From Brevibacillus laterosporus LMG 15441 (GTDB lineage Bacteria > Bacillota > Bacilli > Brevibacillales > Brevibacillaceae), in NCBI RefSeq assembly GCF_000219535.2, contig NZ_CP007806.1, positions 2,638,501 to 2,702,500 on the forward strand: DNA of 64,000 bases, written 5' to 3'. The stretch's first letter is position 1; each line of letters begins with the position of its first letter. Under the pieces are notes generated by a model. That model had not been told where the DNA came from and ran no database searches. It saw only the letters and a list, made by a program, of their open reading frames with translations. Below are positions 1 to 17,394 of the stretch, piece after piece. Position numbers and translations under genes: made by a program.

Positions 1-3000
1 CGTCCAGCCAGCTTCACCTGTTTGCGGGCAGGGTCGATCGCAACAGCGGCTTCAGCTACTGCGCTACCTGCTGTTTTTTTACTGCTTACGATTTGAAGCT
101 CATCGGCTAAGGCAAAGGGAAGCACTTGTTGCTGTAGCAGCACATGATCGAACCGAATCTTCCCAATAAATACACGACTGATCTTTTTGGACATCACCTT
201 CTGAAAAGCAGCAACAGCCAATGCAGTTGAAAGAGGGACAAAGATCCCGTTCTCATCATTACCAGCCTCAAATGCCATTCCCGTTTCCTTCCAAGCAGAC
301 CAATTAATCGTGATTACCGGTTTGTTCTGTTTTCTTCGATAATCCGCAAAAGAATCCAGATAGGCATTCGCAGCCGTGTAGTCAGCCTGCCCCGCGGAGC
401 CGAATAAGGAGGTTCCTGAAGAGAAAAGAACAAAAAAGTCTAGCTGATCCTGCTCTGTCAGCTTGTCTAACAGCCATGTTCCCTGAACCTTCGGGGCCAA
501 CACTGCCGAGAACTCCTCAGGTTCTTTGCGGATGATAAATCCGTCTCCTGGAAGGCCTGCGCTGTGGATGATTCCGTCAATTCGCCCAAAACGTGTCCGC
601 AGGTCTTCCAGTACATATTGCAAATCAGCTTCTTTGGATACGTCCGCCTGATAGTACAAAATCTTGCTACCCATCCGCTCTATTTCCTGAATAGCTGTGA
701 GCTTACGAATTGTTTTTTGGCAAACATCATTTCGAGTAAGCATACTGTCCCAGTCATCTTTTTCAGGTAAATCAGAACGACCGAGCAAAGCCAGCTTCAC
801 ACTTTGCTGTCCAGCCAAATACTTGGCAATCGCAAGCCCTAAGCCGCCGGTACCACCCGTGATCAGGTAAACACCGTTTTCACGAACTGTCACATCACAA
901 TCGGCAGAAGCGGAAAGAGCCTTTCTGCGAAACTCTTCTACATATCGTTTTCCTCTACGATAGGCGACAACTTTACTTGTCTGCTCTTTCGTAGCTTCAA
1001 GCAGAAGTTCCTTTACACCCACCATCTCGTCAGCATCCACACACGTACTTACCAACTGAGGATACTCTTGCTGGATTACTTTTGCTAAACCAAAGAGTGT
1101 TGCATATTCCGGATTGAGTGTACTTTCCGCTCCTGTCACCTCATGCACATTGTGGGCGACTACTGTAATGCCAAGCTTTCTGGCTGCATTAGAATGAGCA
1201 ACTAATTGTTTTGTTAACGAAAATAAACTATGAACGCCACGCATCTGTGCAAGCTCAAGCTCGGACAAAGCTTGTATACTCTTGTGATCCTTTACGCCAA
1301 ACATATGGAAGACATGGCCGATATCACGTGAGTCAAGCTCCTCTAGCAAACGGCGATAATCCTCTTCCTTGGCGCTTAAAACAAACTGGTGTTCTGTGCA
1401 TTTTTCAAAACATGTTCCAAATGAGACCTCAATGACATCATTTCCCATTTCACGAAGCTGTCGTGCCAACTGATCGCCTAATTCCCGTTCGTCCTTCAAG
1501 ATCAAAACCGCTCCAGCTATGGTCTGTTGACTCGCTTCGTCAACCATCGCTTCCTTCCAGCCTACTTCATAGAACAAGGAATCCTTTAGTTCCTCAGCTT
1601 CATCCTTGACCTCTGGTATCTCAATCCAGCAACGCTTCGGTTCAAATGGATAAACGGGTAGGCGAATCTTCTTATACTCTGCACTAGAATAAAGCACATC
1701 CCAGTCTATAGAAGCTCCTTGCATATAAAGGAGGGCTAGCTGTAGATAGATTTCTCCCCGCTCCGATTTATCCGCTTGTGAAAGCTTTCCGAGCAACTCG
1801 ACTGCTTTTCGCGTTGCCTCTTGATTTTCCTGTTTGGCATAGCCATACCCGGCAGTAGCGATATCTCCCTTTTGGACAGCATCCGCATCCAGTGAAGCAA
1901 GGGCCTCCTGAAATTCACCCGGATGGCTTAATACCAGTGCTATCCTGTATTCGTGGTGCCATCTTCCAGTATTGGCAGTGTAGCAGGCATCAGCTATCTC
2001 GTTTTCGTTTAACGTACGGCTAAAGCTCTGATGCCTCCTAATCAGTTCGGCCAAAGCAGCAGTAGATTTCGCAGATAATGTATAGAGGTGAGGCCATTCT
2101 AGAGCTGTTTCTATGGCTGAAGCAGTTGGGGCTTCCTCCAGCACCATGTGACAATTGGTTCCACTCATCCCAAACGAGCTAACGCCGCACCGTCTCGGCT
2201 GCCCATTTGTCTCCCAATCGCTAAGCATATCGTTTACATAAACAGGTGAGTTTTCAAACGCTATGTTTCGATTGGGCGTGGTAAAATGCAAGGATGGCGG
2301 TAGTTTTTTGTTATACAATGCCAATACCGCTTTTACAAAACCTGCTATACCCGCAGCATTGTCCAAATGACCCATGTTTGTCTTCAAGGAACCAATCGCA
2401 CAAAACTGACTTTTCTTTGTAAACCTGCGGAATGCTCTGGTTATTCCGTCAATTTCGATCGGGTCTCCTAGCTTGGTACCTGTTCCATGTGCTTCGATAT
2501 ATTCAATGCTCTCCGGCTCGATTTTTGCTTGCTTCCAAGCGCGGAGAATCACATCCTCCTGAGCAAGGACATTTGGGGCCGTAATTCCCACAGAGGCACC
2601 ATCCTGATTGACGGCACTACCTTTGATCACAGCATAAATATGATCGCCGTCACGCAGCGCCATTTTTAACGGCTTCAGCAAAACCGAGACAATCCCCTCG
2701 CCCGATCCAGTCCCATCTGAGCTGTCGTCAAAGCTTCGCGCTCGTCTATCTGAAGAGTCAATGTTTAAGTCAACACTTAGTGAGCTAAGCGGCAAAAGAT
2801 CAATCTTCACGGCCCCAGCTAATGCCATATCGCACTCCTGATTGCGTAGTGCCTGGCAAGCCTGATGAACAGCGATCAATGAAGAGGAGCATGCTGTGTC
2901 AATCGCCATACTAGGCCCTCTAAAATCTAGTAAATACGCAATTCTACTGGCAATCATGGCCGGAATATTTCCGACCATTGCCATCTGTGCCAGTTCAGGA

Positions 3001-3521
3001 TCAATTTCAGTGATCATTTGGTAATAATGATTAGCCTGAAAACTATTGATTCCAACAAACACACCCGTACGACTGCCTGTTATCCTACTTCCGCCATAAC
3101 CAGCGTCCTCAATCGCCTCCCATGCACTTTGCAAGAACAAACGCTGAGAAGGATCGATTGCACTTGCCTCTTTAGGCGATATACCGAAAAATGAGTAGTC
3201 TAAGGTGTCCACTCGATCTAAATAAGCCGCCTCCAAATACTCGCCATCCTGCATCCCTGCATGCCGGACAAACGCCTCTGCATCGTTTCTCCTCGACTTG
3301 GGGAACGGACCGATACAATCGATTCCGTTTGCTATGGTTTGCCAAAACATATCTTGATTTTCTGCCAGGGGAGCCTTCACGGAAATGCCAATGACAGCAA
3401 TCTCATCATGAGTGACGTTACTTTCTTCCTGCTTGATACGTTTCAACAGCTCAATAGCCGTCTGTTTTTCAATGCTACCTATCGTTGACTGCTCGATGAC
3501 GTATTTCAAGAGATTATTCAT
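1..3521 (-). CDS. trans-AT type I polyketide synthase, KS-KR, 3' end outside window
   Basis: Extends the NRPS-bound chain with one malonyl unit and reduces the beta-ketone. The frame is open from the ATG at 3521 to base 1, giving about 1,173 residues, and continues past the edge. The start has a GAGGTGATC ribosome site. Residues 1-35 form a short helical docking-like segment. The ketosynthase follows (about 38-430) with the full triad Cys211 (DTACSSS), His345 (HGTGT) and His385 (NMGH). A linker ending near LPVYPFEP comes next, with no acyltransferase domain. The ketoreductase occupies about 560-1110, with NADPH loop G889-G-T-G-G-L-G and catalytic Tyr1048 (ADYTAAN). No LDD motif is seen near HSAG, so an A-type ketoreductase is inferred. 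No dehydratase lies between KS and KR. The missing AT fits the free-standing AT encoded two genes upstream. A carrier protein and release domain are expected outside the window. Confidence 0.93.
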   Translation of the reverse strand, partial: MNNLLKYVIEQSTIGSIEKQTAIELLKRIKQEESNVTHDEIAVIGISVKAPLAENQDMFWQTIANGIDCIGPFPKSRRNDAEAFVRHAGMQDGEYLEAAYLDRVDTLDYSFFGISPKEASAIDPSQRLFLQSAWEAIEDAGYGGSRITGSRTGVFVGINSFQANHYYQMITEIDPELAQMAMVGNIPAMIASRIAYLLDFRGPSMAIDTACSSSLIAVHQACQALRNQECDMALAGAVKIDLLPLSSLSVDLNIDSSDRRARSFDDSSDGTGSGEGIVSVLLKPLKMALRDGDHIYAVIKGSAVNQDGASVGITAPNVLAQEDVILRAWKQAKIEPESIEYIEAHGTGTKLGDPIEIDGITRAFRRFTKKSQFCAIGSLKTNMGHLDNAAGIAGFVKAVLALYNKKLPPSLHFTTPNRNIAFENSPVYVNDMLSDWETNGQPRRCGVSSFGMSGTNCHMVLEEAPTASAIETALEWPHLYTLSAKSTAALAELIRRHQSFSRTLNENEIADACYTANTGRWHHEYRIALVLSHPGEFQEALASLDADAVQKGDIATAGYGYAKQENQEATRKAVELLGKLSQADKSERGEIYLQLALLYMQGASIDWDVLYSSAEYKKIRLPVYPFEPKRCWIEIPEVKDEAEELKDSLFYEVGWKEAMVDEASQQTIAGAVLILKDERELGDQLARQLREMGNDVIEVSFGTCFEKCTEHQFVLSAKEEDYRRLLEELDSRDIGHVFHMFGVKDHKSIQALSELELAQMRGVHSLFSLTKQLVAHSNAARKLGITVVAHNVHEVTGAESTLNPEYATLFGLAKVIQQEYPQLVSTCVDADEMVGVKELLLEATKEQTSKVVAYRRGKRYVEEFRRKALSASADCDVTVRENGVYLITGGTGGLGLAIAKYLAGQQSVKLALLGRSDLPEKDDWDSMLTRNDVCQKTIRKLTAIQEIERMGSKILYYQADVSKEADLQYVLEDLRTRFGRIDGIIHSAGLPGDGFIIRKEPEEFSAVLAPKVQGTWLLDKLTEQDQLDFFVLFSSGTSLFGSAGQADYTAANAYLDSFADYRRKQNKPVITINWSAWKETGMAFEAGNDENGIFVPLSTALAVAAFQKVMSKKISRVFIGKIRFDHVLLQQQVLPFALADELQIVSSKKTAGSAVAEAAVAIDPARKQVKLAG

Positions 3522-3581
3522 TTTCGTTTAGATCACCTCTTTATTCTCCGCATGCAATGTTTTTTGAAAAAATGATCTTGT

Positions 3582-5171
3582 TTACGCCTTTACATATCGC
3601 CAGGTATTCTGAAAAGTAAGCATCATACCTTCTTCTTCTTCCGTAAACTCCATTAATCCAAATTCATCTACATAGAACAGATTATCCTTAAGAGGAACAC
3701 AAACCGTCTCGGTGTCCTCATCAATTAAAACAGGGCCTCTATCATCCACTCGGAATGAAAAATTGAGAACGTTGTCCGTGTAATCCCCTTCAAACTTATA
3801 CCACAGGGATGAATCAGATTGATACAGACGTTCGGTCGTTCTTTGGCATGCGGAACTGTTGACCATGATGTACGGAGCAGCTTCCCCGTCTTTAGGAATA
3901 AAACCGATATGATCGAGCGGTTCCTGTTCGTCATCGTAGGTGATAAAAAAATGCTCTCTGACGTAACATAGTTGTCTTTCTTCGCCATTCAAATTCAAAT
4001 ACAGCTCATTATCAGACATTCGCACCTGAGCCGCGCCCTTGAGAAAACCGATATACGTTCCTTCATAGCTTGACCATTGCGATTTATCCACGGGCGGTTC
4101 CTGGAAGCTGGCTGCTGCAAAAACTTTCGGCATTTGCTTAGGTAGCTCAAGCATTTGGTCAAGAATCTCATGTGCCTCTGTCCAGCCATAATCCTGCGAG
4201 GAAAGAGTTATGACACCTACTTTTTGTTCCGGTACAAGAAGAATTGCACTGTTGTATGTGCTGATTGCCCCGGCGTGCCTTATCATCTGAACTCCCTTGT
4301 AAGTATCCCTAAAAAATGTAAGTCCGCTTGCCAATCCAGACAGGGTGAAGCGGTCCGCCTGTAGCGAATGCATCTCTTCGATGGATTCTGGCGAAAGAAT
4401 CTGTGTCTGACCAACACGCCCCCTATTCAGATGCATAAGGGCAAATCTAGCTAAATCATTTACCGTTGACATCGCAAAGTAGGACGGGTAATTCGCTGCG
4501 TTTTCTGGAAAGTTATGCTGAACGCGTAAAGAACCGTCAGGATGGCGGTCATGGGCAAGCGCCAATGAATAGGTGAAAGCTACCAAAGGATCATACAAAG
4601 TCCGGCTCATTTGAAGAGGATCAAATAACCATTCTTTCATGAATTCTGGAAAAAACTGACCCGTCACCCGTTCTGCTACATATCCCGCCAGATTCAAATG
4701 GTGATTGCTATAGGAATGCAAAAATCCTGGTGGTGCCATTAGGGTTAATTGAGAGATTTCTTCCCGGACATATTCCCCTAATGCCCCTAGATCACGCTTG
4801 CCAACCATATCACCACCGTCTGGAAATCCTGCCGTATGGTTGAGTAGCATACGCAATGTTACTTTCCTAGCGGCCTCTGGATCGCTAAGACGGAATTCAG
4901 GTATGTAATTTATAATCGGTATATCGAGCTCTACCTTCCCCGCTTCTACAAGCCGCATGATGGCACTTCCAGTAAGTGGCTTCCCCAAAGAGCCAATGCG
5001 GAAAATTGTATCGCAAGTTACAGGGGTCCCCCCTTCTTCCTTGTTAATACTGCCAAAGCCCTTAGCATAGACGACTTCCTCACCCTTGAGAACGGCTATT
5101 GTAAAACCTGGGATGCGTGTTTCGTCAAACGTTTGCTGAATAATTGCATCAATGCTTTCAATAGATAGCAT
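3582..5171 (-). CDS. serine beta-lactamase-fold hydrolase (CubicO/class C-like) inside the NRPS/PKS operon
   Basis: A penicillin-binding-protein/beta-lactamase superfamily serine hydrolase of about 529 residues. It has the nucleophile motif Ser61-Leu-Gly-Lys64 (S-x-x-K) and the second catalytic motif Tyr154-Ser-Asn156 (Y-x-N). A beta-rich C-terminal domain follows from about residue 350. No signal peptide or membrane segment is visible, so it should act in the cytosol. The reading frame also offers an ATG at 5192, but a GGAGG at 5184-5188 inside the end of the AT gene favours the ATG at 5171. The gene therefore begins just after, or overlaps by 14 bases, the AT gene and is probably translationally coupled to it. 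Such enzymes in natural-product operons can release, trim or inactivate the product; which applies here cannot be told from sequence. The third motif is less certain (a His-Ala-Gly near residue 310). Confidence 0.88.
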   Translation of the reverse strand: MLSIESIDAIIQQTFDETRIPGFTIAVLKGEEVVYAKGFGSINKEEGGTPVTCDTIFRIGSLGKPLTGSAIMRLVEAGKVELDIPIINYIPEFRLSDPEAARKVTLRMLLNHTAGFPDGGDMVGKRDLGALGEYVREEISQLTLMAPPGFLHSYSNHHLNLAGYVAERVTGQFFPEFMKEWLFDPLQMSRTLYDPLVAFTYSLALAHDRHPDGSLRVQHNFPENAANYPSYFAMSTVNDLARFALMHLNRGRVGQTQILSPESIEEMHSLQADRFTLSGLASGLTFFRDTYKGVQMIRHAGAISTYNSAILLVPEQKVGVITLSSQDYGWTEAHEILDQMLELPKQMPKVFAAASFQEPPVDKSQWSSYEGTYIGFLKGAAQVRMSDNELYLNLNGEERQLCYVREHFFITYDDEQEPLDHIGFIPKDGEAAPYIMVNSSACQRTTERLYQSDSSLWYKFEGDYTDNVLNFSFRVDDRGPVLIDEDTETVCVPLKDNLFYVDEFGLMEFTEEEEGMMLTFQNTWRYVKA

Positions 5172-5178
5172 TCTGACA

Positions 5179-6414
5179 TCAAACCTCCACATGTATAGAA
5201 TTAACGCATCCTTTTTGTTTGTATCCCGTGATCTGATACAATTGATCCATTCTTCTTTCCTGTTCCTCCAAAGGCGTCTGTTTTGCAGCTAGCATCATCT
5301 GCAAGCACTTCATCGCCTCGTCTATTTCCCCCAAATCAGGTCGTCTTCCACACTCCTTCAGCTTATGCCCAAGCTCTTGCAATCTATGATACGGCTGCAC
5401 AAATCCTTTTTGGTATGCTGCTTCGTCATTGTTACGATTCTTTGTGCAGATACCAATCCGGATGCACGTCTGCACCACAGTCGGAAATTCCTCTTCAAGC
5501 TTTTGACGATCTGATGGTTCATCAAAGGAAAAAGCCCTAAGTGTCGGAACGTTTTTCCTTGTCAGATTACGAAGCACCGTTTTTGGCCCGAACTCAATAG
5601 CAAGTTCTACTCCTTGGTCATGAGCATCCTGCATAATTTGCGCCCATTTGACTGGCTCAGTCATTTGTCTAGTCAGTAACTCGGCAATGCAAGCTTGATC
5701 ATCATACGGCTTTCCAGTCACATTGGAATAAACCGGCCATTTCAATGTATCAACATTGACCTTCACAAGCTCAGCATGTAATCGTTCGGCTGCTGGCTTC
5801 ATCAGCATGCAATGAAAGGGAGCACTTACCTGTAACGAGATAAGCTGCGCACCTTGTCGCTTTATCATCTCGCTCACCCTGCTGACTGCCTCCCGATGAC
5901 CGGCAATCACCACCTCATGCAAAGAATTGTAACAAGCGATCTCCACTGCCTTCTGTCCCTCAGATACGCTGTGGCACATGTCAGCTACTAGGGTAGCGGG
6001 GATATTACGTACAGCTACCATACTTCCTTCACCCGGCGAAACCGCTTCCTGCATGAACTGTCCTCTTTTGGAAACAAGTAGAACAGCATCCTGAAACGAA
6101 AGGGCTTCTGCGCAAACCAGAGCAGAATATTCACCCAGACTATGACCGGCTAGATAGGATGGCTCGATTCCAAACTCTTGCATGAACACCCGAAATGCCG
6201 ACACGCTTACGGTCAGAATGGCTGGCTGTGCTATTTCCGTACGTGTTAGTTCTTCCCGACTGCTTTGCTCACAGCACTTTTTTAGGTCAAATCCCAAGGT
6301 ATCACTTGCTTCTTCAAACGCCTGCCGAGCAATTTCAAAGTCTGTATACAAATCCAAGCCCATTCCTGCATATTGGGAGCCTTGTCCCGAGAACATCATG
6401 GCGAGCTTTTTCAC
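5179..6414 (-). CDS. free-standing malonyl-CoA:ACP acyltransferase (trans-AT)
   Basis: Loads malonyl units onto the carrier domain of the AT-less PKS in the same operon. The protein has 411 residues. It starts with the oxyanion motif GQGSQ near residue 10, has nucleophile Ser92 in GHSLGEYS, and has catalytic His201 in an APFHC segment, the position that typically marks malonyl specificity. The catalytic fold ends near residue 300. The last 90 residues are a helical, charged extension not needed for catalysis, which may serve for docking. The start codon is GTG, well placed after GAGGAGGAAGAA. The gene lies 78 bases after the NRPS stop, and that gap contains an imperfect hairpin (about 6449-6482) without a T-run. 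A housekeeping FabD is the alternative, but the location and the C-terminal extension argue for a dedicated trans-AT. Confidence 0.93.
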   Translation of the reverse strand: MKKLAMMFSGQGSQYAGMGLDLYTDFEIARQAFEEASDTLGFDLKKCCEQSSREELTRTEIAQPAILTVSVSAFRVFMQEFGIEPSYLAGHSLGEYSALVCAEALSFQDAVLLVSKRGQFMQEAVSPGEGSMVAVRNIPATLVADMCHSVSEGQKAVEIACYNSLHEVVIAGHREAVSRVSEMIKRQGAQLISLQVSAPFHCMLMKPAAERLHAELVKVNVDTLKWPVYSNVTGKPYDDQACIAELLTRQMTEPVKWAQIMQDAHDQGVELAIEFGPKTVLRNLTRKNVPTLRAFSFDEPSDRQKLEEEFPTVVQTCIRIGICTKNRNNDEAAYQKGFVQPYHRLQELGHKLKECGRRPDLGEIDEAMKCLQMMLAAKQTPLEEQERRMDQLYQITGYKQKGCVNSIHVEV

Positions 6415-6492
6415 TTCTTCCTCCTCACTCTCGTAGAAGCTTGAGAATCCTGAGGGCAGTCATTTTTCGATTGCCCATCAGGAAACTGACTC

Positions 6493-9400: not shown

Positions 9401-12400
9401 GTATCAAGCGTCTGTTTTTCCGAAACCTCGAACATCTCGATTTCTACTGGACAACTTTGGGAGATACGCTGAACAGGTTCACCATTTACCAGGTCAAATG
9501 AAGTTCGCAGAGCCTCATGACGATCCACTAGCTGCTGATATGCCTCCTGCAATCGCTGTTTATCCAGCTTGCCCGTTGCCCGTAAGATTCCTGACATATT
9601 GTATGAAGTGTTACTGCCCTGCATTCGATCCAGCAAAAACAAGCGTTTTTGTGCAGAGGAGACTGGATAGTGCTCGCTCTGGGTTACTTGCTGAATGGGG
9701 AATTCGATCTGTTTAGATTTTCCTTTGATCCGTGTAGCCATTGCTTGTAAAGTAGCGTGGCTAAATATCTCGGTCACTGAGATATCCGCGTCAAACGATT
9801 GCTTTATAGCTGTCGCAAGCTTAACGGCACGCAGGGAATCTCCCCCTATGGTGAAAAAGTGATCCGTCGCTCCAATTCGCTCTAAACCAAGAACATCAGA
9901 CCATACTGCTGCCAATCGCATTTCCCAATCCGTGGTAGGAGGCACATATCCCTTCGTCTGAAGGCGTTGCTCGCTCGGTTCTGGCAGTTGATTTTTTGCT
10001 ACCTTTCCATTCGGAGTAACAGGAATACTCTCAATTTGCACAAAGCTTGCAGGGATCATATAGATCGGAAGCCTCTCTGCCAAATACTCACGTAATTCCA
10101 TTAGGTCGCTCTCCTTCTGGAACACGATATACGCGCATAAGTAAGCTTCGTCCTCTGCATCCTCTCTTTTTATCACACAAGCATCAGCGATCGCCGGATG
10201 ATCTAGGAGGACAGCTTCAATGTCTCCTAGCTCCATTCGAAATCCCCGTATCTTCACCTGCTGGTCAATTCTGCCCAAAATCTCTATATTTCCATCAGGT
10301 AGCCATTTTGCCAAATCTCCTGTTCGATATAACCTCTCCCCTGAAACAAACGGGTTTTGAATAAATTTATCTGCTGTTAATTCTGGCCGATTGACATATC
10401 CTCTAGCTATGCCTGGTCCAGCAATGCATAGCTCCCCTGGAACGCCAATCGGCAGCAGTCTTCCTTCCTGATTAAGGATATACACGTGATAATTGCTTAT
10501 CGGTTTTCCAATAGGAATGCTTCGCTCTTCTCTACCCTGAACATGAAAATAGGTAGCGCACACCGTTGCCTCTGTTGGCCCGTATGTGTTGTAAATCGCT
10601 ACTCGGTCTGCGTAGCTGGTATAATATGCAGGCTTTAGCACATCTCCGCCACTGATGATCAATCGAAGACTCGGGATAACCGGGTATTTATTTAGTTCAT
10701 TTAGCAGTAGGGGTGAACAACTAATGACGGTTACCTGATGTTCGCGCAAAATGGAAGCCAAAGCAGACACATCCCTGATTTCCTCACGGTGAGGAATTAC
10801 CATGCAGCCACCATTCAAGAGAGTCGGATACATCTCCTCAACGAATGCATCAAACGAATACGATGCTTGCTGCAAAACCACGTCATCAGCGGTTATTTGG
10901 AACTCTTTATCAAAAGCATGCAGATACGCAAGCAGATTTCCGTGTTCCACCATTACCCCTTTTGGTTGTCCTGTAGAGCCTGATGTGTATATGGCATATG
11001 CCAAATCAGTTAGCTTATTAACACATGGTGGGTTAATGTCCTCCTCCTCTGCAAGCGAAGGGTCATCCAAAGAAAGTATGTCTTCAATAAAATCAAGTTG
11101 TTCCGCGATACGGGATTTGGTCACGAGCAATGGAAAACCACTGTCTTCCCAAATGGCTCGAATTCGGTTCATCGGTAGCTCTGGATCAATTGGCAAATAA
11201 GCTCCGCCCGCTTTCAGCACAGCCAAAATGACTGCTACCATGTCGGCAGAACGCTCTACGATCAAACCAACAACCGTGTCTGGGCCTACTCCCTTTTTCT
11301 TCAATCTGCTAGCCAAACGATTTGCATATTCATTTAGGAACCCATAGTTATACGACTTTCCGTCCGCGATGATAGCTGTTTTTTCTGGTTGTCGTTTTGC
11401 CTGTTCTTCAAATAGCTCTTGTACCAATTTCTCCGTGCTATATGTAGAAGTCGTCGTATTAAACTCGTCGAGTATCTGCTGTTGCTCCTGTTTGGACAAC
11501 AGACTGATTGCCGACAGTTGCTCATCTGGGGACGCAGCAATCTGCTTCAGCACGCTAATAAATTGCTTAGCTAGGCGGACAATTGTTTCATTTGTAAACA
11601 ATTTGGTAGCATACTCAAATTCAAAGCACAGGCCGTTTGCTTCCTCTCGTGCGGTGACTGACAAATCGAATTTAGCCACTTGCTGTTTACATTCAACCGA
11701 CTGGAATGATAGCTCTTCGCCAATCGAAAACGAATGGATAAGCGCAGATTCTAATGTGAACATCGTGTCAAACAGAGGGTTTCGACTGGAGTCACGCTCT
11801 ACGCATACCTTGTCGACCAGCAATTCGAATGGGTAGTCTTGATTTTCTAAAGCTAGAAGCATGTTTTGTTTCACTTCTGTCAGGAAATCTTTAAATAACT
11901 TCTCGCCCGACGGATAATTGCGCAACGCCAAAGTATTAACGAACATGCCGAGTAGATTGTCCAACTCCTCATTACGCCTTCCCGCCACAGGCGTTCCCAC
12001 CACAATATCGGTCTGTCCAGAGATATGCATAAGCCATACATAATAGCTAGCTAGCAATACCGTATACAAAGTCGTTCCATTTTGTAATGCAAGTCGGTTC
12101 AGTGTCTCAGCCTCCGATTGATCCAAAACCATCTTGACAAGCCCCCCGGCAAAGCTTTGAACGGCACTGCGCTGATAATCAATAGGCAATTGTAAAATCG
12201 GGATCTCACCAGCAAAGCTTTCCAGCCAAAACGTCTCCTGTTTTTTGCATTCTTCTGATAATAGCCATTCACTCTGCCAGACAGCATAATCCGTATATTG
12301 AACTGGCAGTGCTGGTGGCTCTATTCCTTGATATATCTTGACAACTTCCTGAATAAAATTAGAAATCGTTACACCGTCACCAATGATGTGGTGCATATCA

Positions 12401-15400
12401 AAGAAAAGCAGATGTCGATCTTCAGCCGCCTTTGCCAGTCCCAATCTCAGAAGGGGAGCTGTTGTCAAATCGAATGGTTGTATAAATCGGTCGGCTATCT
12501 CATCAACTGTTGTTAGGTCAAATGACGGATCAAGAGAAAGCGACTGGAGGGAGAGAGTGATAGTTGGTTCCACTCGCTGAACAGGTACCCCATCAACCCA
12601 TTCAAACGAGGTCCTTAATATATCATGGCGTTGTAAAATCTGTACAAAAGCCTTCTCCAAGCGCTCCTTGTCTAATTTTCCCTCGATTTGCATCACAGCC
12701 GAGATGTTGTAGTTGACGCTGGCTCCATCAATTTCGTGTAATAAAAACAATCGTTTCTGTGCTGATGAGACAGGATAATACGAACGCTTCTCTACCACTG
12801 GGATGAGCGATGAGTTAGCTGATTGCTGCGTGATAACATATTGTGCCAGCTTTTGTACCGTTGGGTTTTCAAAGAGTGCCGAAATCCTCAGTTTCATTTT
12901 CAGCATCCGGTGAACCCTGCCGACCAACTGCATTGCCTTTAACGAATGACCTCCCCTTTCAAAAAAATGATCTAGAACGCCGATGTTATTGATCTCTAAC
13001 ACTTCTTGGAAAAGCGCGAGCAACGTTTCCTCCGTCTCATTACTCGGTGGTTCATAAGAAACGGCTTGTTCAAAAATGATAGTAGGCTTAGGCAACAGAG
13101 CTTTATTGATTTTTCCGCTTGTGTTTAATGGCATCTTCTCTATTTGTTCAAACCAATCAGGAACCATATATGCCGGTAAACGTTGCGACAAGTAGTTTCG
13201 TAGAATGGAAGACTCCAGCAGTTGATTTGCCACATAATACGCGCACAAATATTTTTGCTGTTGCTCGTCTTCTCTTACGATTACACATACTTCCCGTACC
13301 GATTCGTACTGAAGTAATACATGTTCGACTTCAGTTAGCTCAATGCGGAATCCGCGAATTTTCACCTGATTGTCGATTCGCCCTAAATATTCAATGCTAC
13401 CGTCAGGCAACCATCTAGCCAAATCTCCTGTCCGGTACATCATTTCATGATCAGCAAAAGGACTAGCAACAAACACACTCTCTGTCAGCTCAGGCCGATT
13501 CAAATATCCACGAGATACACCATCTCCAGCCACACACAGCTCTCCAGGAAAGCCGATGGGAACTAGCTTGCAATTCTTATCTACAATATAGGCTTTCGTA
13601 TGACTAATAGGCTTGCCGATCGGAACATTCACCTCATAGTCCGAGGTGACGGGAAAAAAGGTAGAAAACACTGTGTTCTCTGTTGGACCATATCCATTCA
13701 CGATCAATAATTGTGGACATTGCTGACGAACTCGGTTGACGTGTATGGGAGAAACTGTGTCCCCACCCACAATCAATGTATGTACATCCGAGAAGAGGGA
13801 TGGATTCTCCATAGCAAACTGGTTGAACAGCGGACTAGTCAGCCATAGTAGTGTGACTTTATTTTGTTGTAACGTTTGTCTAAAATGATCGACGTCTAAA
13901 AGCTGTTCTTTTGTAAGTAAGCAAAGCGTAGCTCCATTTAACAGCGATCCAAAAATCTCAAATACAGAGACATCAAAGACAAGCGAGCTTGTTTTTAATA
14001 GACAATCCTGTGCTGAAATCCGAACCGTCTGTTGATTTTGCACCAAATGAATGACATTACGATGCTCCACCATGACCCCTTTTGGCAAACCACTAGAACC
14101 GGACGTGTAAATAATATAAGCCAAATCTTTTGGACTAACAGAATGAATCATGTTTTCCTTAGAATAGGAGCCCAATGCAGAATTCTGGATGTTGAATATG
14201 CAGCCGTTGTACTCCTGAAGCAAAGACGTAAAGCCGGTCTGTGTAATTACTACTTTGGCGCCACTATCATTGAGCATGTATTGAATTCGTTCTAATGGAA
14301 AACTAGGATCAATAGGCAGATACGCCCCGCCTGCCTTTAGGATGGCTAGAGTGGCGATAATAGATTGCATCGGCTCCTCCACGAGAACCGCAATCACACT
14401 CTCTCGTGATATACCCAATTCGATTAGCTTCCATGCTAGCTGATTTGCTTGTTCATTCAGTTTTTGATAGGTCAAACTTTGATCATCATGAATTAATGCA
14501 ACATGATTAGGGTGTTCCTTTACTTGTTGTTCAAACATGAGCGGTATGGATTGATAGAGGACGTATTCATCTTGTTTATCGTTAAATTCTTCTAATATCT
14601 GTTTCTCCTCTTGCAATGTCAGCAACGAAAGTTTTGATACCTTCTGTTCCACATCCTCTGTCATACACTCAATAATCCGTCCATATAGGGTAAGCAATCT
14701 ACCAATCGTCTCATTAGAGAAACGATCGGAACTGTATATAGCCTTTATCTCTACCTGTTCATATTCAGAAATGACCAAGGTGAGATCGTAGTTTGTCATT
14801 TCAAAAATAGAATACTCCTGAAGCGATAAAGCATCTGTGTTTCCTACTTGTTGATCCAGTGGATAATTCTCTACCACCACAATTGAGTCAAATAACGACG
14901 GGACATGGGCTATTTGACTGTAGCCTTTAATTTCTGCCAAGGAGGTAAACTCAGCGTCATCCCGTCCCATCATGGTCGTGTTCACTTGCTTTACTACATC
15001 AAGAATCGGAAGCTGTTCACTGGCTCTCACCCGCAACGGTAGCGTATTAATAAACAGTCCAACCATCTGCTCGATACCGGGAATTTTAGCGTTTCTCCCC
15101 GAAGAGGTGACGCCAAACAAGACATCCTCGCATCGGTTGAATTTTTGCAGCAATAACCCCCACGCGCTGTACATAAAAGCCGAGAATGTTACCCCATGCT
15201 GTTTGGCAAGCATCTCAATTTTCTCTTTCGTCCGTATAGGTAGCATCAACTGCCGGGTACTTACAACTGCGCTATCCACTTCGTCCCTATTGTAATCATG
15301 GGGTAACATTGTTTTTGAATCGAATCCATCCAGATACTCTTGCCAATAAGTAGCTTGTTTGTTTTTATTCTGCTTTTGTATCCATTGGATAAACTCTTTA

Positions 15401-15954
15401 TATTTCGTTTTTTCCTTATATTCCGTTAATTCATTATTCAGTAACGATTGATAAACATCCCAAAATGTCTGAAGCAAAATCCCTGTACTCCAGCCGTCAA
15501 ATAAGATGTGATGGTTCGTAATCATTAACACACATTCTTGTTCATTCAAGAGGACAAAGGTAATACGAAAAGGGGCTGAACTTAAATCAATCCCTTGGTC
15601 CAGATCATTGCTTTTGATGATTTCTAGCTCGTTTGCCTGTTCTTCCCTATCCCTGTTTTGAAGTGAAAAAACTCGAAAAGGAATGGGATGCTCCTTCAAA
15701 ATAATCTGTACAGGACTTCCTGTTTTTTCCCAGCGGTAAATCGTGTGAAGCATCTCATTTTGCTTGGCAACGATGTTCCACGCCTGTTCGAACAGCTCTG
15801 TCCGAATAATTCCACGGATCGTTAGCGAAAGTTGTTCTATGTATTGTCTGGAATCCTGATGTTCCAGATAATGAAACAACATGCCTTCCTGAAGCGGAGT
15901 CAGACCTAGAATATCCTCAACATTTTTCCGATCCAATGTGGCTACTCGACTCAT
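6493..15954 (-). CDS. three-module non-ribosomal peptide synthetase (C-A-PCP)x3
   Basis: Assembles three amino acids and passes the peptide to the downstream PKS. It has 3,153 residues. Order: C1 (HHILFDGW near 148), A1 (YTSGSSG near 621), PCP1 (GGHSL near 1001), C2 (HHIIGDG near 1186), A2 (YTSGSTG near 1658), PCP2 (GGDSL near 2040), C3 (HHIISDG near 2221), A3 (YTSGSTG near 2691), PCP3 (GGHSL near 3065). An acidic helical tail (about 3115-3153) looks like a docking domain. Aligning by eye to GrsA gives specificity residues DVFWIGGVF for A1 (close to the known Val code), DAESIGTVC for A2 (close to the Lys code of bacitracin synthetase) and DAWYLGSVT for A3 (nearest Leu, weaker). No epimerase, methyltransferase or thioesterase domain is present. 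C1 has the LTPLQEGML opening typical of domains that accept a D-residue donor. The ATG follows GAGGAGGG and lies 13 bases after the hydroxylase gene. Confidence 0.96.
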   Translation of the reverse strand: MSRVATLDRKNVEDILGLTPLQEGMLFHYLEHQDSRQYIEQLSLTIRGIIRTELFEQAWNIVAKQNEMLHTIYRWEKTGSPVQIILKEHPIPFRVFSLQNRDREEQANELEIIKSNDLDQGIDLSSAPFRITFVLLNEQECVLMITNHHILFDGWSTGILLQTFWDVYQSLLNNELTEYKEKTKYKEFIQWIQKQNKNKQATYWQEYLDGFDSKTMLPHDYNRDEVDSAVVSTRQLMLPIRTKEKIEMLAKQHGVTFSAFMYSAWGLLLQKFNRCEDVLFGVTSSGRNAKIPGIEQMVGLFINTLPLRVRASEQLPILDVVKQVNTTMMGRDDAEFTSLAEIKGYSQIAHVPSLFDSIVVVENYPLDQQVGNTDALSLQEYSIFEMTNYDLTLVISEYEQVEIKAIYSSDRFSNETIGRLLTLYGRIIECMTEDVEQKVSKLSLLTLQEEKQILEEFNDKQDEYVLYQSIPLMFEQQVKEHPNHVALIHDDQSLTYQKLNEQANQLAWKLIELGISRESVIAVLVEEPMQSIIATLAILKAGGAYLPIDPSFPLERIQYMLNDSGAKVVITQTGFTSLLQEYNGCIFNIQNSALGSYSKENMIHSVSPKDLAYIIYTSGSSGLPKGVMVEHRNVIHLVQNQQTVRISAQDCLLKTSSLVFDVSVFEIFGSLLNGATLCLLTKEQLLDVDHFRQTLQQNKVTLLWLTSPLFNQFAMENPSLFSDVHTLIVGGDTVSPIHVNRVRQQCPQLLIVNGYGPTENTVFSTFFPVTSDYEVNVPIGKPISHTKAYIVDKNCKLVPIGFPGELCVAGDGVSRGYLNRPELTESVFVASPFADHEMMYRTGDLARWLPDGSIEYLGRIDNQVKIRGFRIELTEVEHVLLQYESVREVCVIVREDEQQQKYLCAYYVANQLLESSILRNYLSQRLPAYMVPDWFEQIEKMPLNTSGKINKALLPKPTIIFEQAVSYEPPSNETEETLLALFQEVLEINNIGVLDHFFERGGHSLKAMQLVGRVHRMLKMKLRISALFENPTVQKLAQYVITQQSANSSLIPVVEKRSYYPVSSAQKRLFLLHEIDGASVNYNISAVMQIEGKLDKERLEKAFVQILQRHDILRTSFEWVDGVPVQRVEPTITLSLQSLSLDPSFDLTTVDEIADRFIQPFDLTTAPLLRLGLAKAAEDRHLLFFDMHHIIGDGVTISNFIQEVVKIYQGIEPPALPVQYTDYAVWQSEWLLSEECKKQETFWLESFAGEIPILQLPIDYQRSAVQSFAGGLVKMVLDQSEAETLNRLALQNGTTLYTVLLASYYVWLMHISGQTDIVVGTPVAGRRNEELDNLLGMFVNTLALRNYPSGEKLFKDFLTEVKQNMLLALENQDYPFELLVDKVCVERDSSRNPLFDTMFTLESALIHSFSIGEELSFQSVECKQQVAKFDLSVTAREEANGLCFEFEYATKLFTNETIVRLAKQFISVLKQIAASPDEQLSAISLLSKQEQQQILDEFNTTTSTYSTEKLVQELFEEQAKRQPEKTAIIADGKSYNYGFLNEYANRLASRLKKKGVGPDTVVGLIVERSADMVAVILAVLKAGGAYLPIDPELPMNRIRAIWEDSGFPLLVTKSRIAEQLDFIEDILSLDDPSLAEEEDINPPCVNKLTDLAYAIYTSGSTGQPKGVMVEHGNLLAYLHAFDKEFQITADDVVLQQASYSFDAFVEEMYPTLLNGGCMVIPHREEIRDVSALASILREHQVTVISCSPLLLNELNKYPVIPSLRLIISGGDVLKPAYYTSYADRVAIYNTYGPTEATVCATYFHVQGREERSIPIGKPISNYHVYILNQEGRLLPIGVPGELCIAGPGIARGYVNRPELTADKFIQNPFVSGERLYRTGDLAKWLPDGNIEILGRIDQQVKIRGFRMELGDIEAVLLDHPAIADACVIKREDAEDEAYLCAYIVFQKESDLMELREYLAERLPIYMIPASFVQIESIPVTPNGKVAKNQLPEPSEQRLQTKGYVPPTTDWEMRLAAVWSDVLGLERIGATDHFFTIGGDSLRAVKLATAIKQSFDADISVTEIFSHATLQAMATRIKGKSKQIEFPIQQVTQSEHYPVSSAQKRLFLLDRMQGSNTSYNMSGILRATGKLDKQRLQEAYQQLVDRHEALRTSFDLVNGEPVQRISQSCPVEIEMFEVSEKQTLDTIIAHFIRPFDLADAPLVRVGLVRQSDTEHTVLFDMHHIISDGLSMQILIRDMAAFYQGIKVSPLSVHYKDFSTWQNERFQSAHFQKHEQYWLDAFAHDIPILEIPLDFPRPSMKGHAGGKVSFTLIGDDMAALERLTMETETTKFMLLMAVYHVFLSRYSGQEDIIVGSPVAGRFHSDLQEMIGMFVNTIGLRSQPAGHKRFIDFLTEVKALSLQAFEYQEYPFEKLIENLQLPRDSSRHPLFQTVLVFEEDQTDSFRAGDIQFVSLHDPNPIEKFDFTLFAKQTKSGLHITLSYDLQLFSEETAKRMLQHFRTLLSRVIEQPMGQICGLEILQDEEKVQISEIFNNTKTNYPVYPSIHACIEEQAKIASQRPALVFKDQSLTYDQLNRKANQLARVISRSGVRSDEIVGIIAHHSLEMVVGMLAVLKAGAAFLPIDPAYPAERIQYILADSKVKTVLASAGVKEAYNGNSESWLDMTTLTLDMEDDSNLLLPVEQRDLAYVIYTSGSTGMPKGVLIEHGSLLNLSLWYRDYFKVSKQDATTKYAGFGFDASIWEVFPYLISGACIHIIPEEIRLDLPKLHEYFEANGISISYLATAIGEQFMKLPNRSLRMLLVGGDRLKQISPTSYQVVNSYGPTECTVTSMVYPIDQSTPSEIPIGKPIANAEILILDPLYNRLQPIGVPGELCIGGVGLARGYIGRQELQAEKFIAHPFKPGQRLYKTGDLAKWMPDGNVLFLGRRDTQVKIRGYRIELEEIEARLLQHHLVQEAVVKVIEHVGYPAICAYYVSTEPIAEVKLRTFLSQTLPAFMLPSFFVQLEALVLTPNGKIDYKKLPMPEVVHGDQAQLQIPENDIEEQVLSIWMKLLQNPSIGLHDNFFDLGGHSLLLVQMQGELAKIYPNVVSVTDLFAYPTVSKLAAYIQEQLEPVAEEVEAEESMDQKLATMLEKVEEGDLSMEDALALLEEMEIKR

Positions 15955-15967
15955 GGATACACCCTCC

Positions 15968-17002
15968 TCAGTTTAATGCTGAATCAAATTCAAATGTGTA
16001 GTTCGTCGATGGATCAGCCATCGCAACCACTACCTTCCGAGGGCCTACAAAAGGGGCACGGCCATGTGATACAAGCATATTATCTAGCATCAGAACGTCT
16101 CTCTTCTCCCAAGGAAAATAGACGGATGTGCGCTCGAAGACATTTCGGATTTCCTCAAGAATAGCTAGATCTATCGGCTGCCCATCACCAAAGTATGTAT
16201 TACGTGGGTAGTTCTCTTCTGGTACGGCCATCATGATGTAGTCGCGAATTTCCTCTGGCAGGTTGGTTACATGGAATAGGTGAGCTTGATTAAACCAAAC
16301 CCATTCGCCCGTTTTTGGGTGCTTCGCAACGGCTGGACGCAGGGAGCGAGTTCGTAGGCAATCGCCGTTTAGCCACTCATATTCCATCCCCATTTTCTTG
16401 CAGTACTGCTCCACTACTGTTTTATCCTCTGTTCGAAACACATCTTGCCATGGCAAGTCGAGCCCTCCGCCGTAATTACGAACATACATGACTTTCTTTT
16501 CCATAAAACGCCTTACGATAGCAGGATCAAGCAGCGATAAGACCTCTCGGCTGTCAGCAATCGGTGTCTCTCCTCCCTGTTGAGCCGGCTGTGCACAATA
16601 GAACCAAATTTTCATCGCCCATTGGTGGGCATATGAGTTTTCGTTATGCTGCGGAATGCTCTGGTCCGCTGGATATTCCGTCGAAGTGTACACTCTTCCC
16701 TGCACCTCTGTTCGTGGAGTAGAGCGTTCACCGTACTCTACAAGCTCAGGAGCGAATTGCTTCGTTAGGTTTTCGAAGCTCTCAATGGTCAGTACGTCAA
16801 AACCTCTGAAAAGAATACCACCGTATTTCAGCAAGCTTTTTTCGATTTTTTCAGCATGCTCCTTTACCCATGCATGCAAATCAAGCTGTTCATCTATTGG
16901 TCGAATAACGAGCGGAAGCGTCCCCTGTACATTTGGCAATAGCTCTACTCTTACCTTCTGATCAAACATCGTTTCCTGAATCGCTACCACTTCTTTTTGC
17001 AT
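15968..17002 (-). CDS. TauD/SyrP-like Fe(II)/2-oxoglutarate-dependent hydroxylase
   Basis: First gene of the biosynthetic operon, about 344 residues. It is probably a hydroxylase acting on an amino acid or a carrier-bound residue of the peptide. The double-stranded beta-helix iron triad can be read as His119-x-Glu121 (segment QHNEN, the H-x-E form seen in clavaminate synthase-like enzymes) and distal His313 (LVSHGRAPF). An Arg-Lys pair nine to ten residues later could bind 2-oxoglutarate. The frame also allows an ATG at 17023, but only the ATG at 17002 has a plausible Shine-Dalgarno (GTGGGG). The next gene starts 13 bases after the stop, so the NRPS is co-transcribed. Free-standing SyrP-type enzymes usually beta-hydroxylate aspartate; here the NRPS predicts Lys, Val and Leu, so the substrate is open. 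Confidence 0.9.
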   Translation of the reverse strand: MQKEVVAIQETMFDQKVRVELLPNVQGTLPLVIRPIDEQLDLHAWVKEHAEKIEKSLLKYGGILFRGFDVLTIESFENLTKQFAPELVEYGERSTPRTEVQGRVYTSTEYPADQSIPQHNENSYAHQWAMKIWFYCAQPAQQGGETPIADSREVLSLLDPAIVRRFMEKKVMYVRNYGGGLDLPWQDVFRTEDKTVVEQYCKKMGMEYEWLNGDCLRTRSLRPAVAKHPKTGEWVWFNQAHLFHVTNLPEEIRDYIMMAVPEENYPRNTYFGDGQPIDLAILEEIRNVFERTSVYFPWEKRDVLMLDNMLVSHGRAPFVGPRKVVVAMADPSTNYTFEFDSALN

Positions 17003-17394
17003 CTTAATCCCCACTTTCTTCATTCCTATTTATAAACTTTTTATTCCTATTTCTACTAATCAACGCTTTTTGATTCAAAGAGGTAGATTCAAATCAGATG
17101 GCGATACCTGCCTTGTCCTGTTCCTGACAGTATATAACCAAGTCGTGAAATTGCTCCCTGAAATTCCGCTAATTCTAGCATTGTAATAGCATAGAAAAGT
17201 CATTTTTCTAAAAAATTCAGTTATATCGAGATAATATCTAATAGTATATTCAATAAATGGAATAATTTCCATATATTTTCCAAATCCATAAACGAAAACA
17301 TAAAAGTTAAATCAGCAACACTAGCGTGCAAAATTTCTTGGGGTTTCCTACAACACGAATAAGACGGAGATGATGGTCGTATGGTTCGTGTTCA

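What the first reader, a model, noticed from the sequence alone, without database searches (positions are those of the whole stretch)
1..17002. NRPS/trans-AT-PKS operon predicted to build a Val-Lys-statine-type peptide
A Leu-like A3/PCP3 feeding a KS-KR module without dehydratase would yield 4-amino-3-hydroxy-6-methylheptanoic acid (statine) or a close analogue, preceded by Val-like and Lys-like residues. Pepstatin-type aspartic-protease inhibitors carry such units; a cationic Lys at the P2-like position would be unusual. Specificity codes were read by eye against GrsA (A1 DVFWIGGVF, A2 DAESIGTVC, A3 DAWYLGSVT). A later dehydratase outside the window would instead give a vinylogous amino acid as in syrbactins. 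I know of no described Brevibacillus product with this exact order.
Basis: partly seen in the sequence, partly recalled or inferred. Interest (0 to 1): 0.75.

Follow-up and report, generated by a model that had tools for sequence, protein, structure and literature searches.

The report
Prodrug peptide factory missing its starter
A soil bacterium carries a seven-gene factory for a new peptide that probably contains a statine-like unit and is kept inactive by a removable tail; the part that should attach the tail is not in the cluster and seems to sit far away on the chromosome.

Summary
The operon runs about 19 kb beyond base 1 (G000:C1:2619636-2655523). It adds Gly, Asn-E, Thr and Glu-like modules, a terminal condensation domain and a transporter-peptidase. 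No DH or ER was found, so the beta-hydroxy unit should survive, but it is internal: this is not a pepstatin-like Val-Lys-statine. The last gene is a ClbP/EdeA-type D-asparagine prodrug peptidase fused to an ABC half-transporter, 78-80% identical to those of 9 of 39 family genomes, with the D-Asn-pocket residues E92 and N331 kept. The first condensation domain of the line falls with domains that follow N-acyl-D-Asn starter modules in such clusters. Yet no such starter lies in the locus. The only one found in the genome is 0.7 Mb away, and its docking tail is of the matching type. Best reading: a new edeine-like prodrug line, probably started in trans. Docking, product and A3 specificity are untested.

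The parts
15968..17023 (-). TauD/TfdA-family Fe/2OG dioxygenase (P0005), first gene of the operon; substrate unknown
   Evidence: PF02668 E=7e-45; PDB 1y0z E=1e-40; 13 bp before the NRPS gene
6493..15954 (-). NRPS P0004, (C-A-PCP)x3: Val-like, Lys-like, Leu-like(?)
   Evidence: Pfam; codes
14578..15912 (-). First C domain and COM-acceptor N-terminus of P0004; clade of condensation domains that follow N-acyl-D-Asn starters
   Evidence: trees (0.96; 0.95); N-terminus score +25.3, second of the 12 own N-termini scored, the first being 2994789
13063..14547 (-). A1, code DVFWIGGVF (Val-like)
9955..11424 (-). A2, code DAESIGTVC (Lys-like)
6856..8328 (-). A3, code DAWYLGSVT (Leu-like, uncertain)
6496..6612 (-). 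C-terminal docking tail of P0004, resembles the NRPS tail that precedes the KS protein in edeine-like clusters
   Evidence: compared by eye
5179..6414 (-). Discrete malonyl-type acyltransferase (P0003)
   Evidence: TIGR00128 fabD 300 bits, above its cut-off of 260.9
3582..5192 (-). S12 serine hydrolase, no signal peptide seen by eye (P0002); function unresolved
   Evidence: PF00144 E=6e-60; 37% paralogue in the sister cluster; relic in B. laterosporus
1..3521 (-). First part of P0009 (3802 aa, G000:C1:2630613-2642021): KS-KR-ACP-C-A(Gly)-PCP-C-A(Asn)-PCP-E; KS and KR lie in the window
2100..3407 (-). KS domain of P0009 (Cys in DTACSSS and two His present, by eye)
285..875 (-). KR domain of P0009 (Ser/Tyr/Asn motif SSGTS...ADYTAAN present, by eye); no DH/ER found

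Best explanation
This is an N-acyl-D-asparagine prodrug assembly line of the edeine kind. An N-acyl-D-Asn leader is put on the first C domain of P0004, most likely in trans by the only Asn starter module found in the genome (C1:1932058-1936566, 0.72 Mb away). P0004 adds Val-, Lys- and Leu-like residues; P0009 extends the third with malonate from the discrete AT and reduces it to a statine-type 4-amino-3-hydroxy acid, then adds Gly and D-Asn. P0006 adds Thr (perhaps dehydrated to Dhb) and a Glu-like residue, and its terminal C domain releases or hands on the chain. P0007 exports the precursor and cuts the acyl-D-Asn leader outside the membrane. Shown: gene content, domains, codes, peptidase residues, clade of the first C domain, absence of a starter in the locus. 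Inferred: substrate loading, in-trans docking, leader cleavage, hydroxyl retention, release.
For: (1) P0007 aligns to full-length ClbP including its membrane helices (E=5e-65) and keeps E92, S95, K98, Y186, K240, F243, N331, D381, D387, P451, W460, F462, W466, P468 (ClbP numbering); PMC9889268 (passages, sections 6 and 9) gives N331 and E92 as D-Asn specificity residues and W460/W466 as strictly conserved. (2) P0007 is 78-80% identical to peptidases in 9 of 39 family genomes. I fetched 6 of those 9 loci: all 6 have a C-A-E gene of 1501-1531 aa with the starter-type layout and tail, and an edeine-like gene order; its Asn code was read in the 2 of 6 I coded. Precursors with N-myristoyl-D-Asn are reported for edeine of Brevibacillus formosus (PMC9889270, passages). 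(3) P0004 C1 joins the acceptor C domains of those clusters (support 0.96; 0.95; same grouping in an unfinished IQ-TREE search without support values). (4) N-terminal docking segments: P0004 (+25.3) and the sister line 2994789 (+26.8) stand apart from the other 10 own N-termini scored (next +11.2, then all negative); C-terminal donor tails: 1932058 (+31.9) stands apart from the other 11 own TPSD tails (next +6.7); the internal D-Asn donor of P0009 scores -15.8. (5) Of 39 genomes 14 have acceptors and all 14 also have a starter and a peptidase; of the 25 others one (G005) has a starter and none a peptidase, at the cut-offs used. (6) The P0004 tail and P0009 head resemble the NRPS-to-KS junction of edeine-like clusters (by eye), which supports the order P0004 then P0009.
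Against: No starter module lies in the locus, although 18 of 19 family peptidases have one within 43 kb; P0007 is the one exception, so the line could be an orphan. The distant starter has its own peptidase 4.6 kb away and is present in two relatives (83-93% identity) where no intact copy of this cluster was found, so it did not evolve for this line alone. The internal D-Asn could itself be the cleavage site. In P0007 the positions of ClbP S188, K235 and H257 are Thr, Met and Asn. The close relative B. laterosporus MSSRFCCT15 carries only a scar of the cluster. Docking similarity is not binding; three own N-termini (939901, 976668, 2725774) were missed by the segment finder and not scored. No product is known.
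Confidence: 0.55

Rival explanations
1. The D-Asn for the peptidase is the internal one. P0007 cuts after the Gly-D-Asn of the chain, so the long N-terminal half (Val-Lys-statine-Gly-D-Asn) is itself the leader or the product, and no remote starter is needed.
For: A5 is Asn (DLTKIGEVG, identical to the Asn code of the loloatin-type cluster and of the starter modules coded) followed by an E domain in the same protein; ClbP is reported tolerant of the acyl part but strict for D-Asn (PMC9889268 passage).
Against: P0004 C1 is of the type that follows acyl-D-Asn starters and would have no partner. In the 15 other peptidase loci I read with neighbouring genes (of 19 in the family, own second one included), a stand-alone C-A-E starter gene is present; its Asn code was read in 11 of the 15.
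Confidence: 0.2
2. Orphan or decaying line: the starter module was lost, and the cluster makes nothing or a shunt product. The scar in B. laterosporus shows the locus can be lost in the genus.
For: No starter; P0006 ends in a C domain with no TE and no acidic-aromatic tail; relic with internal deletions in L008/G004; intact in only 1 of 39 family genomes by the P0002 marker.
Against: All seven own genes are open full-length reading frames with catalytic motifs present by eye. The upstream flank is collinear in the relative up to the dioxygenase, giving no trace of a lost upstream starter.
Confidence: 0.17
3. Pepstatin-like secreted aspartic-protease inhibitor with a cationic P2 residue.
For: Val-Lys-(statine-type) order and no DH/ER.
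Against: Four more modules and a D-Asn prodrug peptidase; statines of pepstatin are made differently (PMC12081711); A3=Leu uncertain.
Confidence: 0.06

Closest known systems
Edeine biosynthesis (Brevibacillus), N-acyl-D-Asn prodrug NRPS-PKS with EdeA-type peptidase-transporter
   Same: Peptidase-ABC fusion 78-80% identical; same kind of first C domain after the starter; discrete AT; NRPS-to-KS docking; KS...C-A(Gly) module
   Different: No starter module in the locus; best-hit identity of the NRPS/PKS proteins only about 31-49%; different residues (Val, Lys, Leu-like, Gly, D-Asn, Thr, Glu-like); internal D-Asn. That the clusters of the second genus make edeine is my assignment, not tested.
Colibactin/ClbP, zwittermicin/ZmaM, paenilamicin/PamJ prodrug systems
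   Same: S12 peptidase with three membrane helices and D-Asn pocket residues; ZmaM/PamJ type has the fused ABC half-transporter (PMC9889268 passages and sections, PMC9054821 passages)
   Different: Their leader module is encoded in the cluster (recalled for colibactin and zwittermicin); the assembled molecules are unrelated
Pepstatin biosynthesis
   Same: A statine-type unit is predicted
   Different: Pepstatin uses discrete iterative enzymes and F420H2-dependent PepI, not a modular KR (PMC12081711)
Bogorol biosynthesis (B. laterosporus)
   Same: P0006 C2 pairs with the C domain after the Thr module of the genome's bogorol-type cluster (support 1.00), hence a possible Thr-to-Dhb step
   Different: Otherwise a different peptide; dehydration is inferred from position only

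Membership tests
N-acyl-D-Asn prodrug NRPS systems (ClbP/ZmaM/EdeA type) | S12 peptidase with SxxK/Y catalytic residues, D-Asn-pocket E92/N331 and three-helix membrane domain | tested here: met
   (positions of S188, K235, H257 differ: Thr, Met, Asn)
N-acyl-D-Asn prodrug NRPS systems (ClbP/ZmaM/EdeA type) | Starter module C-A(Asn)-PCP-E encoded in the same cluster | tested here: not met
   None in G000:C1:2598501-2746000; the only one found in the genome at E<=1e-85 is at C1:1932058
N-acyl-D-Asn prodrug NRPS systems (ClbP/ZmaM/EdeA type) | First elongation C domain of the clade that follows acyl-D-Asn starters | tested here: met
N-acyl-D-Asn prodrug NRPS systems (ClbP/ZmaM/EdeA type) | Precursor carries N-acyl-D-Asn that the peptidase removes | not testable with these tools
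   needs LC-MS
Edeine cluster | Edeine residue order (beta-Tyr, isoSer, DAPA, DAHAA, Gly; recalled) | tested here: not met
   codes differ from those of the edeine-like clusters of G009 and G006, apart from the Gly code and the Asn code
Pepstatin cluster | PepI-type F420H2 reductase and discrete iterative NRPS/PKS genes | tested here: not met
   operon gene list against PMC12081711
Syrbactin-type vinylogous amino acid | DH domain after the KS-KR | tested here: not met
   no DH in P0009 or P0006
AT-less (trans-AT) PKS | PKS module without inline AT plus discrete AT | tested here: met

The most novel reading that the evidence does not exclude
One remote locus (C1:1925395-1939676: half-C-A-PCP-C-A-PCP-TE protein, N-acyl-D-Asn starter, prodrug peptidase) acts as a shared head and tail in trans for two separate middle assembly lines: this operon and the sister line at 2966321-3024014. 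Neither line has a starter of its own or a detected TE; each has a protein beginning with the acceptor-type C domain and ends in a terminal C domain. One set of start, finish and activation enzymes would thus serve two different peptides.
Probability: 0.25. Interest if true: 0.75.

Novelty: new variant of a known kind. Interest (0 to 1): 0.57.

Why it matters
It would be a prodrug antibiotic-type line whose leader is supplied from another place on the chromosome. Cluster-based mining would then predict a wrong N-terminus and miss the activation logic. In Brevibacillus the docking tails of starter and acceptor look distinctive enough to suggest which distant modules belong together, and a single knock-out 0.7 Mb away would test it. 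No description of the predicted peptide (Val, Lys, statine-type unit, Gly, D-Asn, Thr/Dhb, Glu-like) or of an acyl-D-Asn starter acting from another locus turned up in the listings of my paper searches, which cover only open-licence papers and of which I opened ten papers.

Tried and rejected
Pepstatin-like product: rejected because the line goes on for four residues and the reductase type differs. Vinylogous (syrbactin-type) unit: rejected, no DH. Chain starting at the KS protein P0009 and feeding P0004: disfavoured, because the P0009 donor tail scores -15.8 against prodrug donors and the P0004-to-P0009 docking pair resembles edeine-like clusters. P0002 as a PBP-type cyclase: weak hit to 6ksu, which I recall as SurE (E=5e-15), behind 23 other PDB sequences, and P0006 does not end in a PCP, so left open. 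A single-sequence fold of P0002 was useless (mean pLDDT 33), so no fold search was made. A hunt for the cluster with P0002 found no second intact copy in 39 family genomes (the order search, reached the same 39), and one genome-contig scan gave 5 relatives of which only L008 belongs here. The P0002 homologue of G017 (72%) stands outside an NRPS cluster in the 58 kb read. A viral-contig scan with P0005 gave nothing. Specificity codes in print: only DAESIGSV found, of six strings searched. A first donor regex was miscounted and gave no hits; corrected (15 of 15 C-A-E starter tails, 0 of 11 others). Both regexes were written after looking at the sequences; the BLOSUM comparison and the trees are the less biased tests. 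IQ-TREE failed once (threads) and was then cut off by time; only its best topology was read.
Full report
WHAT IS THERE. The window is G000:C1:2638501-2702500. Fetching the chromosome beyond base 1 shows that the operon goes on: P0009 is 3802 aa (KS-KR-ACP-C-A-PCP-C-A-PCP-E), P0006 is 2592 aa (C-A-PCP-C-A-PCP-C) and P0007 is 1027 aa (S12 peptidase + membrane part + ABC ATPase). The seven genes span about 36 kb, 2619636-2655523, with gaps of at most 99 bases (ORF coordinates). G+C is 44.5% against 39.7% on the right flank (the left flank was not computed); six other NRPS loci of the genome range from 39.7 to 45.5%, so this alone does not show transfer.

CODES. I extracted nine-residue codes by aligning the complete A domains found in the loci I had fetched of this genome. 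A4 DILQLGVVW (Gly, recalled), A5 DLTKIGEVG (Asn, recalled; the same code sits at the Asn position of the genome's loloatin/tyrocidine-type cluster), A6 DFWNIGMVH (Thr; DFWNIGMV is PvdD-Thr in PMC3207962 Table 2, passage), A7 DMKDVGVVD (Glu-like, recalled). A2 differs from the printed BacB-M1-Lys code DAESIGSV at one place. A3 DAWYLGSVT shares 6 of 9 with DAWFLGNVV (Leu, recalled; present in the bogorol- and auriporcine-type clusters) and has no printed match in the six-string search. So Leu is the best guess, not a result.

THE STATINE-TYPE UNIT. KS and KR motifs are intact by eye, no DH, ER or inline AT was found in P0009 or P0006, and a malonyl-type AT is encoded alongside. A 4-amino-3-hydroxy acid is therefore the expected unit, followed by Gly. 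Pepstatin makes its statines by another route (PMC12081711, abstract and passages).

THE PRODRUG PEPTIDASE. P0007 residues 39-485 match full-length ClbP, E=5e-65. Mapping residue by residue, 14 of 17 ClbP side-chain positions named in the paper are kept (E92, S95, K98, Y186, K240, F243, N331, D381, D387, P451, W460, F462, W466, P468); S188 is Thr, K235 is Met and H257 is Asn. L447, also mapped, is Val, but only its backbone is used in ClbP. PMC9889268 (passages, sections 6 and 9) gives N331 and E92 as D-Asn specificity residues. In the family, 14 of 39 genomes have such a peptidase-transporter at E<=1e-150, 19 genes in all: P0007, nine of the second genus at 78-80% identity, and nine at 44-48%, one of them in this genome. 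I fetched the loci of 6 of the nine close ones. All 6 have a C-A-E gene of 1501-1531 aa, an acceptor NRPS, a discrete AT and KS proteins; Asn and Gly codes were read in G009 and G006, the two I coded. I read these as edeine-like clusters; the name is my assignment. That edeine is made with an N-myristoyl-D-Asn leader is proposed from precursor masses in PMC9889270 (passages).

THE MISSING STARTER. P0004 begins with a C domain that falls with the first acceptor C domains of these clusters and with the first C domain of a protein of a second line in the same genome, 2994789 (support 0.96; 0.95 with more sequences; same grouping in an unfinished ML search). This clade lies beside the ordinary D-residue-accepting C domains, not with the lipid-starter or L-L types. 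Yet the locus has no Asn starter. Searching 39 genomes with the starter C domain gave 20 starters in 15 genomes at E<=1e-85. With the P0004 first C domain (E<=1e-70) I picked 21 acceptors in 14 genomes; I read the N-terminus of the 30 rows that came with a locus and of the proteins already fetched, so an unread row could hide another. Of the 21, 17 carry the strict motif; two (G003:118103, G009:2854889) miss it by one residue and were kept for their scores; two (G016 C23:171473, G027 C1:3114432) were taken from position and frame length only. Of 20 starters, 16 have an acceptor within 51 kb. The four exceptions are this genome, G003 and G004 (same genus) and G005, which has neither acceptor nor peptidase. 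All 5 acceptors without a starter within 60 kb are in this genus (2 here, 2 in G003, 1 in G004). Of 19 peptidases, only P0007 lacks a starter within 43 kb. In G027 one of two starters has no peptidase within 170 kb at the cut-off. All 14 genomes with an acceptor have a starter and a peptidase; G001, of the same genus, has none of the three.

DOCKING. I scored segments around the docking helices against prodrug acceptors and donors of other genomes (four non-redundant acceptors, six non-redundant donors; G003 and G004 left out of the donors). P0004 and 2994789 lead the 12 own N-termini scored (+25.3 and +26.8; next +11.2); three further own N-termini (939901, 976668, 2725774) were missed by the segment finder. 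1932058 leads the 12 own tails with a TPSD signature (+31.9; next +6.7), while P0009's tail is at -15.8. The P0004 tail and P0009 head look like the NRPS-to-KS junction of the edeine-like clusters (by eye). COM domains bridging E and C domains of separate proteins are an established concept (PMC12402864, abstract). Binding itself is untested.

HEAD-AND-TAIL LOCUS. Next to the remote starter lie a second peptidase-transporter (48% to P0007) and a protein half-C-A(Asp code)-PCP-C-A-PCP-TE. The three genes are conserved at 83-95% in G003 and G004, whose acceptor lines are also elsewhere. No TE was found in P0004, P0006, P0009 or in the eight NRPS/PKS proteins of the sister line (two of the eight only in part). 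The terminal C domain of P0006 is nearest to that of the sister protein 2966321 in one tree (0.87) but not in the smaller tree, so this is weak. In this lineage, proteins that end in a full C domain are often followed by one that starts with a C-lobe only. P0006 lacks the short acidic-aromatic tail of those donors. Hence the shared head-and-tail idea is a hypothesis (the section on the most novel reading), stronger for the sister line than for this one.

HISTORY. L008 (B. laterosporus MSSRFCCT15) and the G004 pieces give identical alignment rows, so I take them as one genome. It keeps the flanks at 88.5-93.4% but only pieces of the cluster: the upstream region with about the first 130 bases of the dioxygenase gene (82%), a broken P0002 (two pieces, 92%) and two short PKS pieces (86-87%); nothing of P0007. 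The relic has at least 19 stops in each of three frames. Elsewhere in the family the only other close homologue of P0002 is in G017 (72%), outside any NRPS cluster in the 58 kb read. The simplest inference is that the cluster was present before the two species split and was lost in one; transfer is not excluded.

OTHER STEPS. P0006 C2 pairs with the C domain after Thr of the bogorol-type cluster (1.00); a bogorol-like peptide with Dhb as first residue is reported (PMC8589628 passage), so Dhb in place of Thr is possible. Release by a condensation domain with a free amine has precedent in glidonin (PMC10587159, abstract and passages).

VERDICT. Ordinary as NRPS chemistry, but an unusual arrangement of a known prodrug system: an EdeA-type peptidase and an acceptor-type line without a local starter. 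I put about 0.75 on the line being a D-Asn prodrug system at all and about 0.5 on the remote starter serving it.

Noticed in passing
G000:C1:1925395-1939676: Three-gene locus: half-C-A(Asp code)-PCP-C-A-PCP-TE, starter C-A(Asn)-PCP-E, second D-Asn peptidase-transporter; no acceptor NRPS beside it in the 20 kb read, conserved in G003 and G004.
   Followed up: partly
G000:C1:2966321-3024014: Sister NRPS-PKS cluster with an acceptor-type C domain at the start of 2994789, a P0002 paralogue, a luciferase-like monooxygenase and a methyltransferase inserted in A domains, and an aminotransferase inside a KS protein; no Asn starter, TE or D-Asn peptidase found.
   Followed up: partly
L008:9525-11416: Scar of the cluster in Brevibacillus laterosporus MSSRFCCT15: broken P0002 remnant and PKS pieces between conserved flanks.
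   Followed up: yes
G000:C1 (whole chromosome): 112 condensation-domain matches in one 5.15-Mb genome, with clusters of loloatin/tyrocidine, bogorol and auriporcine type judged from the codes; the last starts just right of the window at 2703662.
   Followed up: partly
G017:C10:12221-13816: 72% homologue of P0002 standing outside any NRPS cluster in the 58 kb read, which suggests P0002-type hydrolases were recruited.
   Followed up: partly
G005:C1:2983892: Asn-type starter module in a genome with no acceptor or peptidase found; the frame is shorter (1310 aa), possibly a remnant.
   Followed up: no
   Followed up: partly
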